In this document: positions 8,884-19,174 of the stretch, one piece after another
Position numbering within the stretch: the first letter of the stretch is position 1
Layout of the letters: every line of letters starts with the position of its first letter
DNA from: Plumapathes pennacea
Lineage: Eukaryota; Cnidaria; Anthozoa; Antipatharia; Myriopathidae
Reading direction: 5' to 3'
Assembly: GCA_964036295.1 (NCBI GenBank)
Contig: OZ038471.1
Location: 12,542,184 to 12,606,183, forward strand
Length of the DNA stretch: 64,000 nucleotides
Translations under genes and position numbers: made by a program
The notes under the pieces: generated by a model
What the model was told of the DNA's origin: nothing
Database searches by the model: none
Seen by the model: the letters and a program-made list of their open reading frames with translations, nothing else

Positions 8884-10359
8884 TCATGACTTACGGAAAG
8901 GAGCGACATCGCCACCGATCAGGACAAAGGGAGCCCAGTAACAGGGATGATCGAACCTCGTGTCGCCTCTCATGGCTGTCATGGCGTTATGGAGTGCTTC
9001 ACTTGCTCTTTTTCCTTCAGTCAGATGCTCGTAGAACTCCTTCATGAAGAACACGGTGGCCTCGTCGCTAATTGCCCAGAGCGACACGAGAACTGCCCGA
9101 GCTCCAGCTCCGAGGAACGCCCGAGCGATGCCGACTACTCCTTCACCTCTGACTTCTCCACGGCCGCTGTGACAACAACTGAGCACAACCAGTGATGCCC
9201 TCATGCACTTGCCTTCAAGATCGGATATAGCCAACATGACATTTTCCTTGGTTTTCCTTGTACCAGGACTTGGGGCAAACAAGATCTCTCCCCTCTCACT
9301 ATCACCATGAGCCGCAATGTGGATTAAATTGGCACTTTCAAATTTTTCCAAGAATTTTAGTTTGGTCGCATATCTCCCAGTGAAGATCTGACCGTTAATG
9401 TGACCAGCAACTGCTTTGGCTTCCAGTTTTGCATTTTTTAGTCTGGGCACAGGGATTGTCTTTCCGTCCTTCTCAATGTAACCCACCTCTGGATCTCCGA
9501 TGATCAAAGGACGGGCTGCACCTTCTGGGTCCTGCGGATGCTCTAAGATCGTTTTCGCTGTTGCTAACGAGGGTACCAGTCTTACTCGCAAGGTTTCTAC
9601 CACGTAGCGTCCGTTTTCGTCCATCAGAGCGGCGAATGGAACCAAAGCGATATGGCCGTCGGGCACGATGACAACAGATGATCCTTTTAAAAGCTGAAGC
9701 ACTGGGTTAAGAAGAATCTGATGCAGTTCTTTTAGCACACTGTTCAGCTCCGCTTCTTTGTCCGAGAAGGAAATTTCTGCCTCACTGCTAGACGGCGTTT
9801 CAGTTGGTTTTTGGTCAGTTTGAGAAGTATCAAGAGGGCGAGCTTGACCTCCAGATAGATGTAAACTAAAAGGCATTGCTAAAGACTGCATTACGAGTCT
9901 GGTATCGTTCTTAGCCTGTTTTGAAACTTCTTCTGGATAAAGAAACGATAACGAGCGGTCTTCACAATCAATGGTGCAACCAGATCTTAGTAAACCCATG
10001 GCCTTCTTAATCAGTGAGTCTAAATTTGTAAGTTTTGAAACTAGACTGTCCTCCAACGAATGTTTCTGAACTTGCAGTGGAGCATTCGCGTTAACTTGCG
10101 TCTGGACATTTCCACAGGGCTGTATCACCCACCTAATGATTCTATCGCCCACGCCGAGTCCATAGAAAAGGACTGTATCACTCAGGGCTTTGACCACCTC
10201 AAGAATTTCACTTAGTTCCAAACATTTGCTTGTAATGACGTCAGCTCGACGGATACGATGACTGGTAAGCATAAGTTGTGCCAAGGCTTTCGAGCGTCCC
10301 CTTTCAGCAATAACGAGAGCTTCTTCGTTCTTGTCTTGGAGGAGGAGAATTCGGATCAT
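8884..10359 (-). CDS. TPR-CHAT protein, C-terminal CHAT protease part
   Basis: This 491-codon frame holds the C-terminal half of a TPR-CHAT protein. CHAT domains are caspase/separase-like cysteine protease folds. The predicted catalytic His is in IHIAAHGD (residue about 351) and the Cys in VVLSCCHSG (residue about 395), followed by the usual [22 protein letters not shown] segment. The domain runs from about residue 205 to the end, and the stop is at 8,884-8,886. The first 30 residues ([20 protein letters not shown] and onward) resemble the helical linker seen between TPRs and CHAT in this family. The ATG at 10,357-10,359 is not a natural start: it lies in the CATCAG target duplication of the 6.7-kb transposon. 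The N-terminal part is the TPR frame at 17,087-19,174, and the two are in the same frame once the transposon and one duplication copy are discounted. As arranged, it would need a new promoter or splicing across the element to be translated. Confidence 0.9.
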
Positions 10360-10362
10360 CAG
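10357..10362. repeat. Target-site duplication CATCAG, left copy
   Basis: The six bases directly outside the left TIR equal the six directly outside the right TIR (17,111-17,116). On the minus strand it reads CTG ATG, two in-frame codons (Leu-Met) of the TPR-CHAT gene. Confidence 0.92.
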
Positions 10363-10722
10363 TATGGTGGCCCATTGTTATCATAGTAAAATTATATACA
10401 AAGTCATTAAAATAGATTTAAATACCTTTAAAAAAATAAGTAAATTTAAAAAAAGCCAAAAAAAACAAATTAATTTGATAAAGAAATAGAAATAAAAATA
10501 AAGTAATTTAAATTAAAAGTTAAAATTAAAAATAAATAAAATGTTTTCAAAAAAAAAAAAAACTGGAGTAAAAAATCCGAATGAAAAAAATGCAACCAAA
10601 AAAAAGCTAAGTGAAAAACGAAAACGAAATCGATTTTCACATGTCCAACATGGCCCAGCGTTATCAAAGCCCGCACTACATCAGGACAGCGACGGTCACT
10701 GACGTCACGTACCGTAGCCTGG
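10363..10722 (+). repeat. Left terminal inverted repeat (about 360 bp)
   Basis: Matches the reverse complement of 16,941-17,110 (outer part) and 15,418-15,601 (inner part). The inner portion is the best conserved, for example CACATGTCCAACATGGCCCA and CCGCACTACATCAGGACAGC. A very A-rich block (10,430-10,605) lies in the middle. A perfect CRE palindrome TGACGTCA is at 10,700-10,707, 48 bp upstream of the kinase start codon. The repeat is therefore likely to carry the kinase promoter. Confidence 0.88.
10700..10707 (+). promoter_or_regulatory. CRE-like TGACGTCA in TIR, upstream of kinase
   Basis: A perfect 8-bp CREB/ATF palindrome lies at the inner edge of the left TIR, just before the kinase start. 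The matching place in the right TIR (about 15,427-15,440) reads CACGTGACATCGTGACC, with an E-box CACGTG instead of an intact CRE. A functional role is inference. Confidence 0.35.
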
Positions 10723-10754
10723 AAGCCTCATCGCACGTGGTTTATCAAACAGCA

Positions 10755-12291
10755 ATGCCGCCTAAACGACAAGGAGTTTGGGATGATTTACAAGCAAAAA
10801 TGAGAGGGAAAAGGACCAGGGCCGATGCAATAGGTCGCCAAAAAAACAAGATAGGATCTGCGCCCCATGAAGTTGTAGTGCAAAAGCTGTCGTCCGAGCC
10901 GGACAACAAGCAGACCTACCGTCCAATTCAACCGCGGGAGTTTGTTCCCTTCGAGTACGAGGAGCTTAACTTAGCTAACTTGAGAAAAGCGTGCGCTCGA
11001 CATTTCAGTCTTCCGGCAAGCGCATGCGACATACTGGTTTCAAACAAGGGGCCATCTTGCACCAACATTGCTCAAATCCCCCACCGAAAGGACAAGGTAT
11101 GTTACATCCTGAATGACAGCTTTACATATTTCACTCACTCACTTCAAAGCGGTCCTCATATTAATTATTGCCTCCCCCCCGAAACCATATACATATACTA
11201 TTATGTAAATGTATTGATCTATCTGAATCTTATCCAAATTATTACTTTTTTATTTCTATTTCTTTCTTATTGTTTTATCTTTTGCTATTTCTTTGTTCAG
11301 GTGTATCTAGTGAGGTTTGTGTTAATGCAAGATCAGGATGGGGTGCAGGAAGAGGAAGAGGAAGAGGAAGAAGGAGAAATCAACAATTCTTTTGATAATT
11401 TTTTCTCTAATACTGGTAGCTTACCGGGGGGACGTAATGCACCACCACCACCACAGGCCAAAAAATTGAGTCTACACAATTTTGGCCTTACTGAAACAAA
11501 GTTTCCTGCATCTGTGTCCATAGATGCACTTCTTATGGCAGGAAAGCTAATTAAACCCCAACCAAAAAACAAAGCAGTTCTTGAGATGGAAAAGTTTGAT
11601 GTTGAAACCCGTGAATGGCAACAAGGTATGAAGTTGGAACTCCTGGTTGACACTCAAAAGTTTTCATCTGGTGCATTCAGAGATGCTTTTAAGGCTGTCA
11701 CCACTGGTAATGTGGAAGGCCAAAGTCAGGTTTGGGTTCTAAAGATGTATAATGAAAAAGCCATGAAAACAATAAAGGAGACCCTCAACACATCCATTGA
11801 AGACCACACACGCAAGCAGGTACAAATGCATGCTGTGGCAAGGCATCTTACCAAAAGCTTTGCCTCAAAGGTGTCTGCTGAATTTGAGGAGTGTTTTCAC
11901 TACAACTATGTGTACTACACAGAGTACAATGACCAACCATGCACAGTGGAAACATTCGTCCCAGGCACCTTCACAAAGTATGTGAACAACAATGGACTGC
12001 ATTTCACCTGCAGCTGGATGCACCACAGAATGTCAACAGTTGTTTGACAAGGCACAATGCTTGGTGCACTACACATACTGTATGACAGACAAGAAGATGA
12101 TGCTGACAGACATCCAAGGATCTGGATATCATCTGTATGACCCAGAAATTGCTACAGATGAGCTTATTGACATGAATGCACAGGAAGTGTATTTCTGCTG
12201 TGGGAACCTCTCCAAGACTGGGATTAACAATTTCCTGCAGGAACATGCATGTAACAGTTACTGCACAATGATGGGATTAGAATCATTTTAG
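10755..12291 (+). CDS. Transposon-borne alpha-kinase, one frameshift
   Basis: Atypical (alpha-kinase/eEF2K/TRPM7-like) Ser/Thr kinase. The start is the ATG at 10,755 (MPPKRQGVWDDLQAKMRGKR), the first ATG past the TIR that is in frame with the domain. Exon 1 is 10,755-11,096 and exon 2 starts at 11,301. The 204-nt GT-AG intron is T-rich and happens to contain no in-frame stop. A basic N-terminus is followed by a conserved non-kinase region (NLRKACARHFSLPASACDIL), an acidic Glu run, and then the kinase domain: GAFRDAF loop, VLKMY lysine strand, VETFVPGTFTKYVNNNG, DIQGSGYHLYDPEIAT, and a C-terminal zinc motif HACNSYC matching the family's H-x-C-x3-C. Near 11,990 the frame must advance by one base to continue (frame stop at 12,045-12,047), so this copy is broken or carries a sequencing error. 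AATAAA is at 12,801. It faces the transposase gene tail to tail inside the same TIRs. Confidence 0.88.
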
Positions 12292-12821
12292 AGTTATGCT
12301 GCCAGTCCCAAGCTAATGAAGGTGGTTGCATGTTGTCATAACCTTCCAGTTACTGTACTACATGGGATTGTATGCAAAACTTACAATGTATTACTGTACA
12401 TCTACTGTACATTTCAGATGGTAATGTTGTGAAATGGGTGTATGTCCATTTCTTTAAATATCTAGCATATCTTCATAATTTTGTTACTGTTACATTAAGA
12501 CAAGAATACATGTACCAGTCGCAATGCCTGGTGTTACAGCATGTACTATGCAGAACTTATTACTGGCCACATCTAATTTGTAAATTTGATTTTAGAAGAT
12601 AAATTTTAATGCAGTAAGAAAGATGATGTTTCAGATGTTGTCCCTTTGCAATGGGCATATGGCCAGTTTTAATATCTAACATCTTCATAATTTTGTTACT
12701 GTTACAAAACAATAATTATTATTAATGGCGTTATTGTTCCATTTTGTAGAATATTCAACCAAAATAATTTATGTTTCAGAACATAAGCCAAAAGTATTAC
12801 AATAAAATGTTTGAATGCACC
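12292..12821 (+). other. Probable kinase 3' UTR
   Basis: No open frame of interest is present. AT-rich sequence runs from the kinase stop to a canonical AATAAA at 12,801-12,806, only about 16 bp before the stop codon of the convergent transposase gene. The two genes are therefore packed tail to tail and their transcripts probably overlap. Confidence 0.55.
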
Positions 12822-15407
12822 TTATTGTGGTGATATATAATGTGCCTTCAGGAATAGATAAGTGTCTGCTGCATCCCCTGGCTTAACACTGGTGACCTCT
12901 GGTATTATGCGTTCGCATTCTGTCCGTACAGCAGGTGGCAGGTAGTCAACGCCAACAGTCATTACACCTGACAATTCTGCCACTTCATCCAGAGCCTCTT
13001 GCAAAACTGGCCAGCCTAAATGATTGAATAATGATGGTACACACATTTCAATATAGCATTACATACATTGTGCTACTGGTTTTTCCTGAGAAACAATAGA
13101 TAGATGATGGTGCAGCTGTTGGTCCCATTTTATAAAATGCATCCTATTATCATTCCACAAGAAGGTTAGACACTGATAGATTAAGTGCTTTGATGTGTTG
13201 ATATGTGCTTGTGGAGAGACAACAGTTTCAAGTTGTAGATTTACTGGATTCACCTGCTATTCAGGTACATACCACAATCTTCAGCACCATATCTTTCAGG
13301 AAAGTTAAATAAATGATTAGGAATGCCCTTTGGTAACTGAGCATCCTTTTGCTTCCTGATCCGATGGGAGTTCCACACAGTTTCTTTGAAAATGTCCATC
13401 TCTGCTTGGATCACAGGAATGAACACAAAGGCCAAAAGGTTTCTAGACCAAGGTGAGAAAACCAGAAGTAAAGTTTCAATTGGGGACCAGTTTATGAAGA
13501 GGGATGGGTTGAGTGACTAAAATATTATCCACGATAGACTTTCACAAGAATGGATTGATTCCTACCCAAAGAGGAGTGTGTGTTGCATTTCTTGGTTTCT
13601 GTGCCTCTTCCACTAGTGAATTTACAGTACATGGACTGGTGTAAACATTACCTGTCAGTCTCATCATTTGGATCATAATGCCCTTGATCTAGCAACATGT
13701 TCAATTGTCGTTTGAAGTACTTCTCAAGACGATTGTGGAGCTCACGCCACCATCTCTCAATCTGCAAAATACAGAAATATAGGTGAATACATGTACAGTA
13801 CATGATCATTAGAAGGTTAATTTTCTACAGGAGGCATATGGAGTGGTCATTATTATGTGAAAGTCCTATACAAAATAAAAATATTCCTGATACCCCACGG
13901 CACCCCCTGGAAATTTGGTGTTGACACATTGAAAGGTTTTTGGAAGCTAGTTGTACTTTACAATGTACATGCTGTGAATACTGAAATTCTGAAAGAAAAA
14001 TAAAACCACCCTTAGAAAAATGATGTTCAACCTTAAAAATATTACTTGATACCTTATTACTTGTTGAGGGACCATATTGAACAGTATCTGCAGGATCGGG
14101 TATGTCGCCATGACCACTTCTTAAAAATGAATGTATTGTTGCCATGTCTCCAGTTTCAGTTCCCTTATCCAACCTCAAACGGTGACTGATGACTGTAATT
14201 GGATCAACATGGGTTGCACTTTAGTGCAGAATACAAAAGAGACTGCAGTACACTGTAGATACTGTAAGCGGATGTGTAGCATGAAGCAGCCGAGAGTACA
14301 TGTCTTTCTACTCCCCTCCTGGATGGGTTGCTAGTCTATCGCAGGGTCACTGTCCCTACTCTATCCTCGTAATGCTGAACGCCAAACGAGGAAGCAGTCC
14401 ATGTTTGGCATCCTGCAAATATATGTACTATCCCTCATGAAAGGCAGGGTATGCTTTGATCTTTTTACCCAAAAAGAAATAAAACAGGGATTCGTTTATA
14501 TTGAACCACTGTCACAACAAACATTTTACTAGTCCCTTGGCACTTTGATATATTGGGGTTCAACTGTATTATTACATAAATTTGGTAGTAAAGGTATACT
14601 GGTACCCACCTTTGGACTCATATAGATACTCCAAGTACCACTTCCCAATTAGCTTAGGATTTGAATTCGATGTCCACAGTTTCAAATAAAGCAGACGTCC
14701 ACTGAATACATCCATCATTCCATAGACAGCGAGGGGAAAGGTGTCTCTAATGAAGGCCATAAGTTTGTCATGACCATCTCCAGAAAATGTGTGATTTGGT
14801 CCCTGGAAGATTATAGGAGCAAGAAGGAGTATTGAATATTAAACATAAACACATGGGTTTTAGGTGATGATGATGATGATTTTCATTTGATAATTTCATT
14901 TTCAAGCAATGAAAATATCTGACTGACAACTCAAGAAATTGGACCTTTAATATCAAAGATCCCTTGTCTACTTACCAAAGAGGTGAATGTGCCAGTCGGG
15001 CCTCTTTTTCTTTTCTTTGGTGCACCAACATTGCGTCTGCATTCTAAACCCTCGGGGTCCACGTCTGTCATAACGTCATACACCAAGCCTCGAGGAACAG
15101 GTAGCTGGTGGTGCTCACGTATTTTTCTTTGCATACCCCGATATCCAAGAAGCCTCCCTGGCCCGTCATTTTCCAGTCTAACTGCTGCCTTGACCTCTTC
15201 TATGTCAACACCATAGTCTATATACTTGATGTTAAAGTGGGCGAGTCTTCTGCTTAGTGTAGGCAAGCTCCACGCGTACTGCGAAAAATCTCGTTGAACA
15301 AAATCCAAAATTTCTTCACGCTTCAGATTCTTCAAGACGTACTGCTGCAGATACGTCTTCAGGTCGTCGTCGTCTTTCCATTCGGGATTTCTTATTCTGG
15401 CCGCCAT
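12822..15407 (-). CDS. Integrase-like DDE transposase, six exons, intact
   Basis: I can assemble a complete 411-residue protein from six exons, all with GT-AG borders and matching phases: 14,976-15,407; 14,606-14,802; 14,053-14,185; 13,652-13,761; 13,273-13,442; 12,822-13,015. The spliced length is 1,236 nt, exactly 412 codons with the stop. The N-terminal 100 residues look like a helix-turn-helix DNA-binding region (LPTLSRRLAHFNIKYIDYGV), followed by a basic patch (GAPKKRKRGPTG). The integrase-type core has the candidate acidic triad D (SGDGHDKLM), D (RLDKGTETG) and E (IERWWRELH), with 39 residues between the last two. Later conserved blocks are ETVWNSHRIRKQKD and NHLFNFPERYGAEDCGWPV. The start ATG at 15,405-15,407 lies just inside the right TIR. 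The protein should cut and join the element ends in the nucleus. It is transcribed in the same direction as the interrupted TPR-CHAT gene. Confidence 0.9.
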
Positions 15408-15417
15408 CTTGTTCCCG

Positions 15418-15601
15418 CGTTACGGCACGTGACATCGTGACCGTCGCTGTCCTGATGTAGTGCGGGCTATGATAACGCTGGGCCATGTTGGACATGTGAA
15501 AATCGATTTCCTTTTCGCTTTTCACTTAGCTTTTTTTGTTTGCATTTTTTTCATTCGGATTTTTTACTCTTCAGTTTTTTTTTTTTTGAAAACATTTTAT
15601 T
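15418..15601 (-). repeat. Right TIR, inner part
   Basis: Reverse complement of about 10,525-10,720 in the left TIR, with few differences. It lies directly upstream of the transposase start codon, so both element genes begin next to the same repeat, consistent with a duplicated promoter. Confidence 0.88.
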
Positions 15602-16940
15602 AACTTTTATTATATGGCACTGATACTACGCACGCTACGATTGGTTAATTTACCGGTCCATACTTTCCTGTACGGACCGCAAATTGATTTTACGCACGTT
15701 CTGATTGGTCAATTTTACCGGTCCATAACTTACTGTAACGGACCGCAAAATCAGTTTGCACATGTGGATCGCAAATGATTACTCGAAAAGTTGCTAAACG
15801 TTTGTCATAAAAGGCCCAGAAGTGCAATGGGAAGTTTAAACGTTCCGGATACTCACTGTTAAGTTATGATGATCGGGGAAAGTTTACAAGCTTGGAAAAT
15901 GACCGTTACGAAGAAGGAAAACGTCCGAGGAAAAAATTGCTTGCGACCTCAGCCGTCATTGACAACAAGTGCTGCAGAGTATGGAGGGTTGTTTCACCCC
16001 TGTGTTAAAATTTGCACACTTGCCAGGAAGAATTTGGAAAGCGAACAATCACCGTGAACAGTTATGACTAAAACCGTGCAAGAATCAAGTTTTGCAGACA
16101 TGTTTGCTCGTCATGGCGCACTGTGAAGACTGTAAATAAATTTTTCACAATGTACGAGAACTCTGTATTTCGAAATCACTGACTGGGACAAAAACGCCGT
16201 GGTGATTTGAGGACGTTTATTTTGCTGGAAGAAACCTAAACGCTCCACGAGGAGGCAGAAAAATTAAGCGGTGAGTTTTGAATAATATAACTTTCAACGA
16301 TGTTTCGGTCGCAGTTTGTGATGAAATGATTTTCTTTTAGTGCCATTTTGCTTTCTACATTATTGTACGTGTAAGAAACTTATTCAAAAGAATAAAAAAT
16401 ACTCTGAGTTACAAAGCAGTTTCTTCTGGAAAGAGATAAGACTGCAGTTTTTTTAAATCTTTAGTGAGCGAGCAAGGGCGAGTTCGAGTCGTTCACCGAA
16501 TAAAGTTCACTGCAGTGTCGTTGTTTGACATACGCTATGGGCCATTTCATTCAGCTCAGAACAAATTAGTATTTATCTAGGCAGTTGGTTCGACAGACGC
16601 TTATTTTCTTTCAAGATTTTCAAATCGGCAGAATTGTAAGCTGTTAACTGAATTTGTTGTGAAAACAAACGTGCGTAATTCATGCCTGATCGCGATTGAT
16701 GTTGTTGAATGAACAAGACGAGTACTCGTTGGGGCCTTGTTTTATGTTTGCCGAAAGATCTAAAGCCATATAATAAATATCTTATTAACCTCGTTTGCTT
16801 GGTCCGTACCGTAAGTTATGGATCCTCGTTTTTTTCGTCGCCTTATGGCCCTCGCGCGAAGCGCGCTCGGGCCATAAGGCGACGAAAAAAACTCGGTCCA
16901 TAACTTACTGTACGGACCGCGCGCTCGGTTAATAAGATCT
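15602..16940 (+). mobile_element. Nested hairpin-ended element in the right TIR
   Basis: About 1.34 kb absent from the corresponding place in the left TIR (about 10,525). It starts with ATTATATGG (15,609-15,617). The reverse complement CCATATAAT recurs at 16,766-16,774 and is followed by a long hairpin (16,780-16,937) ending AATAAGAT. The same architecture is seen at 60,614-61,730 and 61,740-62,840. It shares with the 60.6-kb element the segments GGAAAGCGAACAATC, TTTTATGTTTGC and a donor-like GGTGAGTT. No transposase is visible, so it is probably non-autonomous. Confidence 0.75.
16780..16937. repeat. Terminal hairpin, arms about 75 bp
   Basis: ATCTTATTAACC and GTTTTTTTCGTCGCCTTATG on the left are repeated inverted on the right around the GC-rich centre GCGCGAAGCGCGC near 16,857-16,868. 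There is a small asymmetry in the arms near 16,790. Confidence 0.9.
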
Positions 16941-17110
16941 ATTTAATTTTAACTTGTAATTTAAATTACTTTACTTTTATTTTCATTTCTTTATCAAATT
17001 AATTTGTTTTTTTTTTGGCTTTTTTTAATTTACTTATTTTTTTAAAGGTATTTAAATCTATTTTAATGAGTTTGTATATAATTTTACTATGATAACAATG
17101 GGCCACCATA
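16941..17110 (-). repeat. Right TIR, outer part
   Basis: Reverse complement of 10,363-10,525. The first 40 bases match nearly perfectly. The host TPR frame runs seven codons into it and stops at TAG (17,087-17,089). Confidence 0.9.
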
Positions 17111-19174
17111 CATCAGTTTGTAGGTCTCAATGAAAATATCGATAAATGAGATTTTTGCCAGATCTTTCTTTCCGACATTCTCAAATAGTGTTTCGAAACA
17201 TTTCAACGCCTCTTCACATGCACATCCTCCGTTTTTATACTCCTGTATGATCATATAAAGAAAAGCAAGGTTACGATAAGAAATTGCTTCACTATCTTTT
17301 CTTCTGGTTTGTTTTGCAATACTTAAGCACCGTCTAAAATGTTCTATAGCCTTGTCGTACTGGCCAAGTGAACCATAACAGCTTCCAAGGTTTCCATAAG
17401 CACGTCCTTCTCCTGCCCTGTCCCCAATCTCCTTTGCGATATTCAGGTGCATTTCATAATGCTCTATAGCCTTGTCGTACTGGCCGAATGAATAATAGGA
17501 GTTCCCAAGGTTTCCGTAAGCACTTCCTTCTCTTGCCTTGTCCCCAATCTGTTTTGCGATATTTAGGTGCATTTCACGATGTCTTATAGCCTTGTCGTAC
17601 TGGCCGAGCGAATAATAACATGTTCCCAGGTTTCCATAAGCAAGTCCTTCTCCTGCCTTGTCCCCAATCTGTTTTGCGATGTTAAGGTGCATTTCATGAT
17701 GCTCTAATGCCTTGTCGTATTGGCCGAGTGAACCATAACAGCATCCGAGGTTTCCATAAGCACGTCCTTCCGTTTTGTGCCCAATCTGTTTTGCGATGTT
17801 TAGGTCCATTTCATGATACTCTATTGCCTTGTCGTATTGGCCGAGTGAACCATAACAGCTTCCAAGGTTTCCATAAGCACGTCCTTCTCCTGCCCAGTCC
17901 CCAATCTCTTTTGCGATATGCAGGTGCATTATATGATACTCTATTGCCTTGTTGTACTGACCGAGTGAATAATAAGAGTTCCCAAGGTTTCCATAAGCAC
18001 GTCTTTCCCCTGCCTTGTCCCCAATCTGTTTTGCGGTATTCAGGTTCGTTTCATATAACTTTATAGCCTTGTCGTACTGGCCGAATGAACGATAAGAGAT
18101 CCCAAGGTTTCCATAAACACGTCCTTCTCCTGCTTTGTCCCCAATCTGTTTTGCGATACTAATGTGCATTTCATGATGCTTTATTGCCTTGTCGTGTTGG
18201 CCGAGTGAACCATAACAGCATCCGAGGTTTCCATAAGCACGTCCTTCTTCTGCCTTGTACCCAGTCTGTTTTGCGATATTTAGGTCCATTTCATGATGCT
18301 CTATTGCCTTGTCGTATTGGCCGAGTGAACCATAACAGCTTCCAAGGTTTCCATAAGCACGTCCTTCTCCTGCCCAGTCCCCAATCTCTTTTGCGATATT
18401 CAGGTGCATTATGTGATACTCTATTGCCTTGTTGTATTGGCCGAGTGAATAATAAGAGTTCCCAAGGTTTCCATATGTACGTCTTTCCCCTGCCTTGTCC
18501 CCAATCTGTTTTGCGATATTTAGGTGCATTTCATGATGCTCTATTGCCTTGTCGTATTGGCCGAGTGAACCATAACAGCTTCCAAGGTTTCCAAAAGCAC
18601 GTCCTTCTTCTTCCTTGTACCCAATCTGTTTTGCGATATTTAAGTCCATTTCAAGATGTTCTATTGCCTTGTTGTATTGGCCGAGTGAACCATAACAGCT
18701 TCCAAGGTTTCCATAAGCACGTCCTTCTCCTGCCTTGTCCCCAATCTGCTTTGCGATATTCAGGTGCATATCATGATACTCTATTGCCTTGTTGTACTGG
18801 CCGAGTGAATAATAAGAGGCCCCAAGGTTTCCATAAGCTCGTCCTTCTCCTGCCTTGTTCCCAATCCTTTTTGCGATATTCAGGTGCATTTCATGATGCT
18901 GTATTGCCTTGTTGTACTGGCCGAGTGAATGATAAGAGATCCCAAGGTTTCCATAAACACGTCCTTCTCCTGCCTTATCCCCAATCTTTTTTGCGATATC
19001 CAGGTGTATTTCGTGATGCTTTATAGCTTTGTCATACTGGCCAAGTGAATCATAACATGTGCCGTGGTTTCCATAAGCACGTCCTTCTCCTGCCTTGTCC
19101 CCTATCTGAAGTGCCTTTTCTTCTTTGGCCTTTGCGTTTTTCAGGAAATTCACTTGAGAGTTTATTTTTTCCAT
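17087..19174 (-). CDS. TPR-CHAT protein, N-terminal TPR array
   Basis: This 695-codon frame is almost entirely tetratricopeptide repeats of 40 residues with the pattern EGRAYGNLGSCYGSLGQY. I count 15 canonical units plus one degenerate unit near the C-terminal end. TPR arrays bind protein partners; in TPR-CHAT proteins they are thought to gate the C-terminal protease. The start ATG (19,172-19,174) is preceded by a likely 3' splice site (TTTTCAG, exon starting at about 19,211), so a 5' UTR exon probably lies further upstream. The last seven residues (YGGPLLS) and the stop come from the transposon TIR. The natural continuation is the CHAT frame at 8,884-10,359, giving about 1,178 residues. Unit 12 is one residue short. 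Units 6-8 and 10-12 are near copies of one another, evidence of block duplication. Confidence 0.93.
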   Translation of the reverse strand: MEKINSQVNFLKNAKAKEEKALQIGDKAGEGRAYGNHGTCYDSLGQYDKAIKHHEIHLDIAKKIGDKAGEGRVYGNLGISYHSLGQYNKAIQHHEMHLNIAKRIGNKAGEGRAYGNLGASYYSLGQYNKAIEYHDMHLNIAKQIGDKAGEGRAYGNLGSCYGSLGQYNKAIEHLEMDLNIAKQIGYKEEEGRAFGNLGSCYGSLGQYDKAIEHHEMHLNIAKQIGDKAGERRTYGNLGNSYYSLGQYNKAIEYHIMHLNIAKEIGDWAGEGRAYGNLGSCYGSLGQYDKAIEHHEMDLNIAKQTGYKAEEGRAYGNLGCCYGSLGQHDKAIKHHEMHISIAKQIGDKAGEGRVYGNLGISYRSFGQYDKAIKLYETNLNTAKQIGDKAGERRAYGNLGNSYYSLGQYNKAIEYHIMHLHIAKEIGDWAGEGRAYGNLGSCYGSLGQYDKAIEYHEMDLNIAKQIGHKTEGRAYGNLGCCYGSLGQYDKALEHHEMHLNIAKQIGDKAGEGLAYGNLGTCYYSLGQYDKAIRHREMHLNIAKQIGDKAREGSAYGNLGNSYYSFGQYDKAIEHYEMHLNIAKEIGDRAGEGRAYGNLGSCYGSLGQYDKAIEHFRRCLSIAKQTRRKDSEAISYRNLAFLYMIIQEYKNGGCACEEALKCFETLFENVGKKDLAKISFIDIFIETYKLMYGGPLLS
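17111..17116. repeat. Target-site duplication CATCAG, right copy
   Basis: Identical to 10,357-10,362 and directly adjacent to the right TIR end. In the host frame it encodes Leu-Met. Confidence 0.92.

What the first reader, a model, noticed from the sequence alone, without database searches (positions are those of the whole stretch)
10363..17110. A DNA transposon carrying an alpha-kinase alongside its DDE transposase
Seen: long TIRs, a 6-bp target duplication, one intact integrase-like transposase gene and one alpha-kinase gene, tail to tail, with nothing else inside apart from a later nested element. Alpha-kinases (eEF2K/TRPM7 type) are not a standard transposon component that I know of. The kinase has a basic N-terminus and its own conserved extra domain, which suggests a settled element gene rather than a random captured fragment. 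Inference: the kinase may regulate transposition, for example by phosphorylating the transposase or a host factor. It could also explain why some genomes have many alpha-kinase genes. The superfamily (IS3EU-like) is from memory.
Basis: partly seen in the sequence, partly recalled or inferred. Interest (0 to 1): 0.92.

Follow-up and report, generated by a model that had tools for sequence, protein, structure and literature searches.

The report
Jumping gene carrying a protein kinase
This is a real, recently active DNA transposon that carries a protein-kinase gene beside its transposase, and the same two-gene layout recurs in many related transposons of this animal genome, so some large kinase gene families may be transposon cargo rather than host signalling genes.

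Summary
Window 10363-17110 is an IS3EU-type DNA transposon: ~350-bp TIRs, perfect 6-bp TSD (CATCAG), a six-exon DDE transposase and a two-exon alpha-kinase, tail to tail. It sits inside a TPR-CHAT coding exon; joined flanks give one 1,201-residue frame. Correction: the window's kinase is frameshifted. The TIR search found four more full copies (99.3-99.8% identical), all four with an intact kinase, three of four with an intact transposase.

The pairing is general. Six of six further kinase loci fetched have the same TIR-kinase/transposase-TIR layout. Genome-wide, 36 of 62 close transposase loci have a kinase within 6 kb (chance about 0.2). Catalytic residues are conserved and two comparisons show purifying selection: a settled element gene.

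It is not wholly new: a 2025 paper says in two sentences that TET-bearing fungal IS3EU elements have transposase and alpha-kinase genes in opposite orientation. New, as far as my searches reach: the animal elements' anatomy, the selection evidence, and a more distant lineage with the same layout but a HECT ubiquitin-ligase-like gene instead (6 of 15 loci). Most likely the slot holds a trans-acting protein-modifying enzyme that helps the element against its host or tunes its transposase. No substrate is known.

The parts
10357..10362 (.). Target-site duplication, left copy (CATCAG)
10363..10716 (+). Left terminal inverted repeat, about 354 bp (starts TATGGTGGCCCATTG)
   Evidence: pairs with the right end of copy L010 at 93.8%
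10755..11096 (+). Alpha-kinase gene, exon 1 (ATG about 39 bp inside the TIR; basic N-terminus and start of the conserved N-terminal region)
11097..11300 (+). Kinase intron (GT...AG), inferred from reading frame and homologues, not from RNA
11301..12291 (+). Alpha-kinase gene, exon 2 with the catalytic domain; in this copy broken by a 2-nt deletion near 11997 (frameshift)
   Evidence: intact in L010-L013
12822..13015 (-). Transposase exon 6 (with stop)
13273..13442 (-). Transposase exon 5
13652..13761 (-). Transposase exon 4 (catalytic E257, by alignment)
14053..14192 (-). Transposase exon 3 (catalytic D217)
14610..14802 (-). Transposase exon 2 (catalytic D153)
14976..15407 (-). Transposase exon 1 (N-terminal helical, helix-turn-helix-like region; ATG about 14 bp inside the TIR)
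15421..15605 (-). Right terminal inverted repeat, inner part (interrupted by the nested insert)
15606..16941 (.). Later nested insertion, 1,336 bp, absent from the four other full copies; not part of the element
16942..17110 (-). Right terminal inverted repeat, outer part (ends CAATGGGCCACCATA)
17111..17116 (.). Target-site duplication, right copy (CATCAG)
8884..10359 (-). Host gene interrupted by the insertion: CHAT part
17087..19174 (-). Host gene interrupted by the insertion: TPR part (listed ORF reads into the TIR)

Best explanation
SHOWN: a two-gene IS3EU-like DNA transposon (cut-and-paste type by its transposase, TIRs and TSDs) in which a conserved alpha-kinase gene is a stable component, convergent with the transposase, each gene starting just inside one of two near-identical TIRs. 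INFERRED from this layout: both genes are driven by the same TIR-borne promoter, and transposase bound to the TIRs could regulate both. INFERRED mechanism: the kinase is made together with the transposase, enters the nucleus (basic N-terminus), is positioned by its own conserved N-terminal region, and acts in trans as a protein-modifying accessory. I think it more likely that it phosphorylates host proteins that restrain the element (silencing, chromatin or repair factors), about 0.45, than that it phosphorylates the transposase to tune its activity or stability, about 0.30. The identity of the element and the kinase as a settled component: about 0.95.
Against: No substrate, expression or activity data. 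Co-inheritance and selection do not tell a host target from the transposase as target. 26 of 62 close transposase loci have no kinase within 6 kb; 18 of these 26 have an in-frame stop in a matched row (against 12 of 36 with a kinase; my count), so they are decayed more often, but stops are not confined to them. Kinase-less derivatives (L027, L028, L041) have transposed, so the kinase is not needed in cis. A seventh kinase locus, L016-L018, has an old left end, a kinase piece and a transposase on the same strand, with no matching right end found. The L021/L022 pair shows weak constraint (dN/dS 0.61 kinase, 1.6 transposase) and L021 has Glu for the conserved Gln. Nuclear entry is only a guess from a basic N-terminus (11 K/R, 3 D/E in 36 residues).
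Confidence: 0.5

Rival explanations
1. The kinase directly phosphorylates its own transposase (or the transposase-TIR complex) and so sets the rate, timing or cell-cycle stage of transposition; the HECT gene of the other lineage would do the same by ubiquitination.
For: Pairing and correlated divergence of the two proteins; both modifiers sit beside the transposase, each gene near a TIR.
Against: Correlated divergence is also expected from simple linkage; a ligase would have to replace a kinase on the same substrate; no phosphosite conservation was tested.
Confidence: 0.3
2. Passenger: a host alpha-kinase gene captured once and carried along, with no benefit to the element.
For: Alpha-kinases also exist as host genes (established knowledge); kinase-less derivatives transpose (L027, L028, L041).
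Against: Catalytic Lys, Asp, Gln invariant across 50 relatives, 6:1 synonymous excess between L024 and L025, pairing kept across families at 34-54% kinase identity to the window family.
Confidence: 0.05
3. Chance neighbours or assembly artefact: a kinase gene and a transposon that happen to adjoin.
For: None found.
Against: Five full copies at different places with the same two genes and different TSDs; 36 of 62 versus 0.22 expected.
Confidence: 0.01
4. The kinase benefits the host or the carrying cell (for example as an immune or stress kinase), and the transposon gains indirectly.
For: This copy lies in a TPR-CHAT gene, a gene class that I recall as expanded in cnidarians.
Against: One insertion that breaks a host gene is no sign of benefit; kinase kept in several element families.
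Confidence: 0.1

Closest known systems
IS3EU superfamily DNA transposons (Repbase name; IS3EU/GingerRoot in PMC10045372)
   Same: TA..TA termini, TAYGG..CCRTA ends, usually 6-bp TSDs; transposase of the integrase-core, IS3-like kind
   Different: The passages that I read describe transposase and termini; the animal two-gene anatomy, its selection and the HECT variant were not in them
TET+ IS3EU elements of rust fungi and Tuber (PMC12730594)
   Same: Transposase and alpha-kinase genes in opposite orientations within one IS3EU element (section 4.1)
   Different: Those have a TET/JBP gene between the two; here there are 530 bp without such a gene. The term alpha-kinase occurs twice in that text, both in section 4.1, with no analysis of its function
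Styx element of Zymoseptoria (PMC10853768)
   Same: IS3EU-related, proposed to descend from an element encoding two proteins, one the transposase
   Different: The second protein is not named in the passages I read; Styx has four coding sequences
Alpha-kinases TRPM7/ChaK, MHCK-A, eEF2K
   Same: Catalytic fold and residues
   Different: No channel, coiled coil, WD or calmodulin-binding part recognised (such parts are recalled); own N-terminal region without a consistent Pfam match

Membership tests
IS3EU superfamily | 6-bp target-site duplication | tested here: met
   Six of six window-family TIR-bounded copies; 4 of 6 other kinase elements, one imperfect, one none
IS3EU superfamily | TA..TA termini, TAYGG..CCRTA ends | tested here: met
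   TATGG..CCATA in the six window-family copies and in L022-L026; L021 left end reads TATAG; description from PMC12730594 and PMC10045372
IS3EU superfamily | DDE transposase with integrase core and IS3-like helix-turn-helix | tested here: met
   PF24764 in 51 of 51 relatives, HTH_21 in 17 of 51 at E up to 0.1 (51 of the 120 listed, my choice); D153, D217, E257; Foldseek matches TnsB, HIV integrase, Mu transposase. HTH_21 as an IS3-type domain is recalled
IS3EU superfamily | Transposase groups with Repbase IS3EU transposases in a tree | not testable with these tools
   Repbase sequences are not held
Alpha-kinase family (PF02816) | Profile match above the curated cut-off and alpha-kinase fold | tested here: met
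Alpha-kinase family (PF02816) | Catalytic Lys, Asp-x-Gln-Gly and Zn ligands | tested here: met
   K262, D385, Q387, H371, H430, C432, C436 in L010; K, D, Q invariant and the Zn ligands at least 90% in A1. Assignment of roles is recalled. Exception: L021 reads DIEG
Alpha-kinase family (PF02816) | Kinase activity | not testable with these tools
   needs biochemistry
TET+ IS3EU (rust type) | TET/JBP gene between transposase and kinase | tested here: not met
   530 bp between the stop codons in the window; no ORF of 80 aa or more lies between them

The most novel reading that the evidence does not exclude
IS3EU transposons have a modular accessory slot opposite the transposase, filled by enzymes that modify proteins: an alpha-kinase in one transposase clade, a HECT-type ubiquitin ligase in a related clade. 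The elements would thus carry post-translational effectors, and alpha-kinase gene expansions in cnidarian (and perhaps rust-fungus) genomes would be transposon cargo rather than host signalling genes.
Probability: 0.5. Interest if true: 0.8.

Novelty: new variant of a known kind. Interest (0 to 1): 0.62.

Why it matters
As far as I recall, few eukaryotic DNA transposons carry a regulatory enzyme of their own; the case I could read about is DNA demethylation (TET/JBP, PMC12730594). A transposon-borne protein kinase conserved over many element families, with a ubiquitin-ligase-like gene in the same place in a related clade, would be a second, protein-level strategy. It also makes an open question testable: why alpha-kinases are so numerous in some genomes. 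A table row in PMC4469406 gives 79 and 39 alpha-kinases for two species (column heads not seen, I take them to be rusts). Gene counts that feed signalling or pathogenicity arguments may need masking for IS3EU.

Tried and rejected
Scans of viral contigs for transposase and kinase relatives and of genome contigs for the transposase: pattern hits, none confirmed. Relatives in solved structures for the transposase by sequence: none at E up to 1. Pfam for the kinase N-terminal region: nothing consistent; the whole-chain fold search is filled by kinases and hardly tests it, so its fold stays open. Cross-species linkage through equal longest-contig lengths: 4 shared lengths among 55 kinase and 64 transposase lengths above 10 kb, chance about 0.005 under a crude log-uniform model (120 of 120 kinase rows and 109 of 120 transposase rows typed; nine of the missing have no contig, two I left out by slip); one is a 12-Mb Ciona contig, which says nothing about distance; a 2,842-base coincidence between searches was not counted. 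No promoter was searched for. Distant transposase loci L034-L037: no HECT hit by tblastn at 1e-4; L034 and L036 have minus-strand ORFs without a Pfam match above cut-off. PMC6505742 was opened for the term 'alpha kinase' and is about eIF2-alpha kinase.

Test against my reading: of the 26 kinase-less close transposase loci, 18 have an in-frame stop in a matched row. Of the eight loci without a stop I looked at seven (two are halves of L027, one belongs to L028, four are L038-L041): derivatives or fragments, no complete transposase gene between TIRs. C8:7802791 was not looked at, nor most of the 18 (one of them is the other half of L028, one is in L016/L017). L040 has a kinase fragment beside its transposase fragment that the genome search had not listed.

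Limits of the counts: the genome search scored 95 of 115 kinase candidates and 101 of 370 transposase candidates, so totals are lower bounds. The 45% identity split and the 6-kb limit were set by me, the split after seeing the list (gap 43-49%). Contig lengths of C3, C7 and C10 in the random control were rounded guesses. Of the two nearest pairs that are not convergent, both also have a convergent kinase within 6 kb by the coordinates. Some elements are counted twice (C10:9528674/9536215, C1:14753217/14754712, C6:1839778/1840892). The six loci were picked by me among high-scoring hits with long matches; they are no random sample. Searches stopped with an error after part of their output; replace them.
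Full report
What is there. Window 10363-17110 starts TATGGTGGCCCATTG and ends with its complement; CATCAG flanks it on both sides. The TIRs are about 350 bp (351 in copy L010). The insertion splits a host TPR-CHAT coding exon: joining the flanks without one TSD copy gives an open frame of 1,201 residues running from TPR into CHAT.

Copies. A 30-base TIR probe finds 15 places, 0 for the reversed control. Besides the window they bound five further elements: L010-L013 (5,410-5,418 bp) and L009 (2.8 kb, internally deleted); the other three places are single ends (L014, L015, L016). All six elements, window included, have perfect and different 6-bp TSDs (CACCTG, CACAAG, GTTGAC, CAGTAG, CTGTAT, CATCAG). 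Full copies are 99.3-99.8% identical, so the family moved recently. The 1,336-bp insert in the window copy is absent from the other four.

Genes. Kinase: two exons, 444 residues, open in L010, L011, L012 and L013; in the window a 2-nt deletion near 11997 shifts the frame. Transposase: six exons, 412 residues, open in the window, L010, L012 and L013, with a stop in L011. Start codons lie about 39 and 14 bp inside the TIRs and the genes converge with 530 bp between stops. Splice sites are inferred from frames and homologues, not from RNA. Pfam gives PF02816 (1.1e-32) and PF24764 (6e-18). Best relatives: kinase 51% to an Exaiptasia protein named TRPM6 by its source; transposase 67% to an uncharacterized Dendronephthya protein. 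The host is therefore probably a cnidarian (inference).

Is the pairing general? I fetched six other kinase loci, chosen among high-scoring non-window hits (six of six asked). All six have a convergent transposase and long TIRs; L022, L023, L025, L026 have perfect TSDs (GACAAC, CTATTG, GACGTG, GACTGG), L024 an imperfect one, L021 none and a TATAG left end. A seventh kinase locus, fetched earlier because of its TIR (L016-L018), does not show the layout: old left end, kinase piece, and a transposase on the same strand 6.5 kb on. Genome-wide, clustering the matches gives 67 kinase and 77 transposase loci. Of 62 transposase loci at 45% identity or more, 36 have a kinase within 6 kb, 34 with the nearest convergent, and the two others with another convergent kinase in reach; of 15 more distant transposase loci, 0 (coordinates). 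Random placement gives 0.22 on average, at most 3. 38 of 67 kinase loci have a transposase within 6 kb, 29 have not. Against: 26 of 62 transposase loci have no kinase. Of these 26, 18 have an in-frame stop in a matched row, against 12 of the 36 with a kinase (my count). L027 and L028 are two copies of a 2.5-kb kinase-less derivative with perfect TSDs (CTGGAG, GAAATG) and a transposase cut at about residue 288; the TIRs include transposase exon 1. L041 is a 1.3-kb derivative with TSD GTGTTG; L038-L040 are fragments, L040 beside a kinase fragment. So cargo-less derivatives move, but no intact kinase-less autonomous element was found among those I looked at.

Co-inheritance and selection. Over nine kinase/transposase pairs (five from this genome, four from contigs matched by length only) identities correlate: Mantel r 0.53, 8 of 20000 permutations. 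The trees agree on window+L023. L021, Ciona and the 3.1-Mb contig group in the transposase tree (0.80) and are left unresolved in the kinase tree (0.161). The trees disagree on L024/L026 and on the 64-kb and 85-kb contigs (each pair sisters only in the kinase tree). An earlier five-pair run gave r 0.69. Codon counts: L024/L025 kinase 6 synonymous, 1 nonsynonymous; window family/L023 dN 0.36 with saturated dS; L021/L022 show little constraint.

The related lineage. The distant transposases (30-43%) include L029/L030, two copies 98-99% identical, with a convergent HECT ORF (PF00632, 1.8e-8) and ends TACGG..CCGTA with a 6-bp TSD TAAAGC in the C2 copy. HECT matches (48 rows, 49 of 49 candidates scored) lie within 6 kb of 6 of 15 distant transposase loci, all six convergent, and of 0 of 62 close ones; random mean 0.04, maximum 2. 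L033 has a weaker HECT relative (42%, no Pfam match on its own). For 9 of 15 the partner, if any, is unknown. So the same slot holds at least two unrelated protein-modifying enzymes. That the two transposase groups are close relatives is inferred from identity and Pfam, not from a tree.

What is known. [quoted passage not shown] PMC10853768 (passages): Styx from an IS3EU ancestor with two proteins. PMC4469406 (one passage): alpha-kinase counts by species. PMC5295586 (one passage): the family in a domain table (2.34, 3.5e-2; head not seen). PMC4150398 (passages): one alpha-kinase under diversifying selection, 'transpos' absent. Searches: 'alpha-kinase' + 'DNA transposon' + 'transposase' gave only PMC12730594; with 'coral' + 'transposon' none (38); 'alpha-type protein kinase' + 'transposase' none (79); 'alpha kinase' + 'transposase' 18 papers, 17 listed, none opened, titles unrelated (80); searches list 20 of 588, 20 of 73 and 20 of 43. 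For HECT: 'IS3EU' + 'HECT' none (106); one search lists 8, none opened. Only open-licence PMC text was searched; Repbase could not be read and may describe such genes.

Verdict. Mechanism remains inference.

Noticed in passing
L029:871-3995, L030, L033 (G000 C12:4816870-4819796, C2:22349146-22351864, C9:8440915-8443929): More distant transposase lineage with a convergent HECT ubiquitin-ligase-like gene in place of the kinase, 6-bp TSD TAAAGC in one copy.
   Followed up: partly
window 8884-10359 and 17087-19174: The element interrupts a TPR-CHAT gene; joined flanks give one 1,201-residue open frame.
   Followed up: yes
TSDs of ten kinase-family elements: Target sites look like SWNNWS: G/C at 19 of 20 outer positions and A/T at 19 of 20 next positions (small sample, pattern seen before it was tested).
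   Followed up: partly
L027:1898-4410 and L028:1954-4487: Kinase-less 2.5-kb derivative with ~700-bp TIRs that include transposase exon 1 at both ends, two copies with different TSDs; L041:4483-5781 is a similar 1.3-kb one.
   Followed up: partly
window 15606-16941: Nested 1,336-bp insert with internal CGGTCC...GGACCG repeats and no ORF of 80 aa or more; class not determined.
   Followed up: no
C10:9528674-9538889: A window-family copy (kinase 96%) that the TIR search missed; its transposase exons are about 7 kb apart, so it probably holds a further insertion.
   Followed up: no
L026:35-772: ORF next to a kinase element that resembles a Harbinger-type nuclease (recalled, not searched).
   Followed up: no
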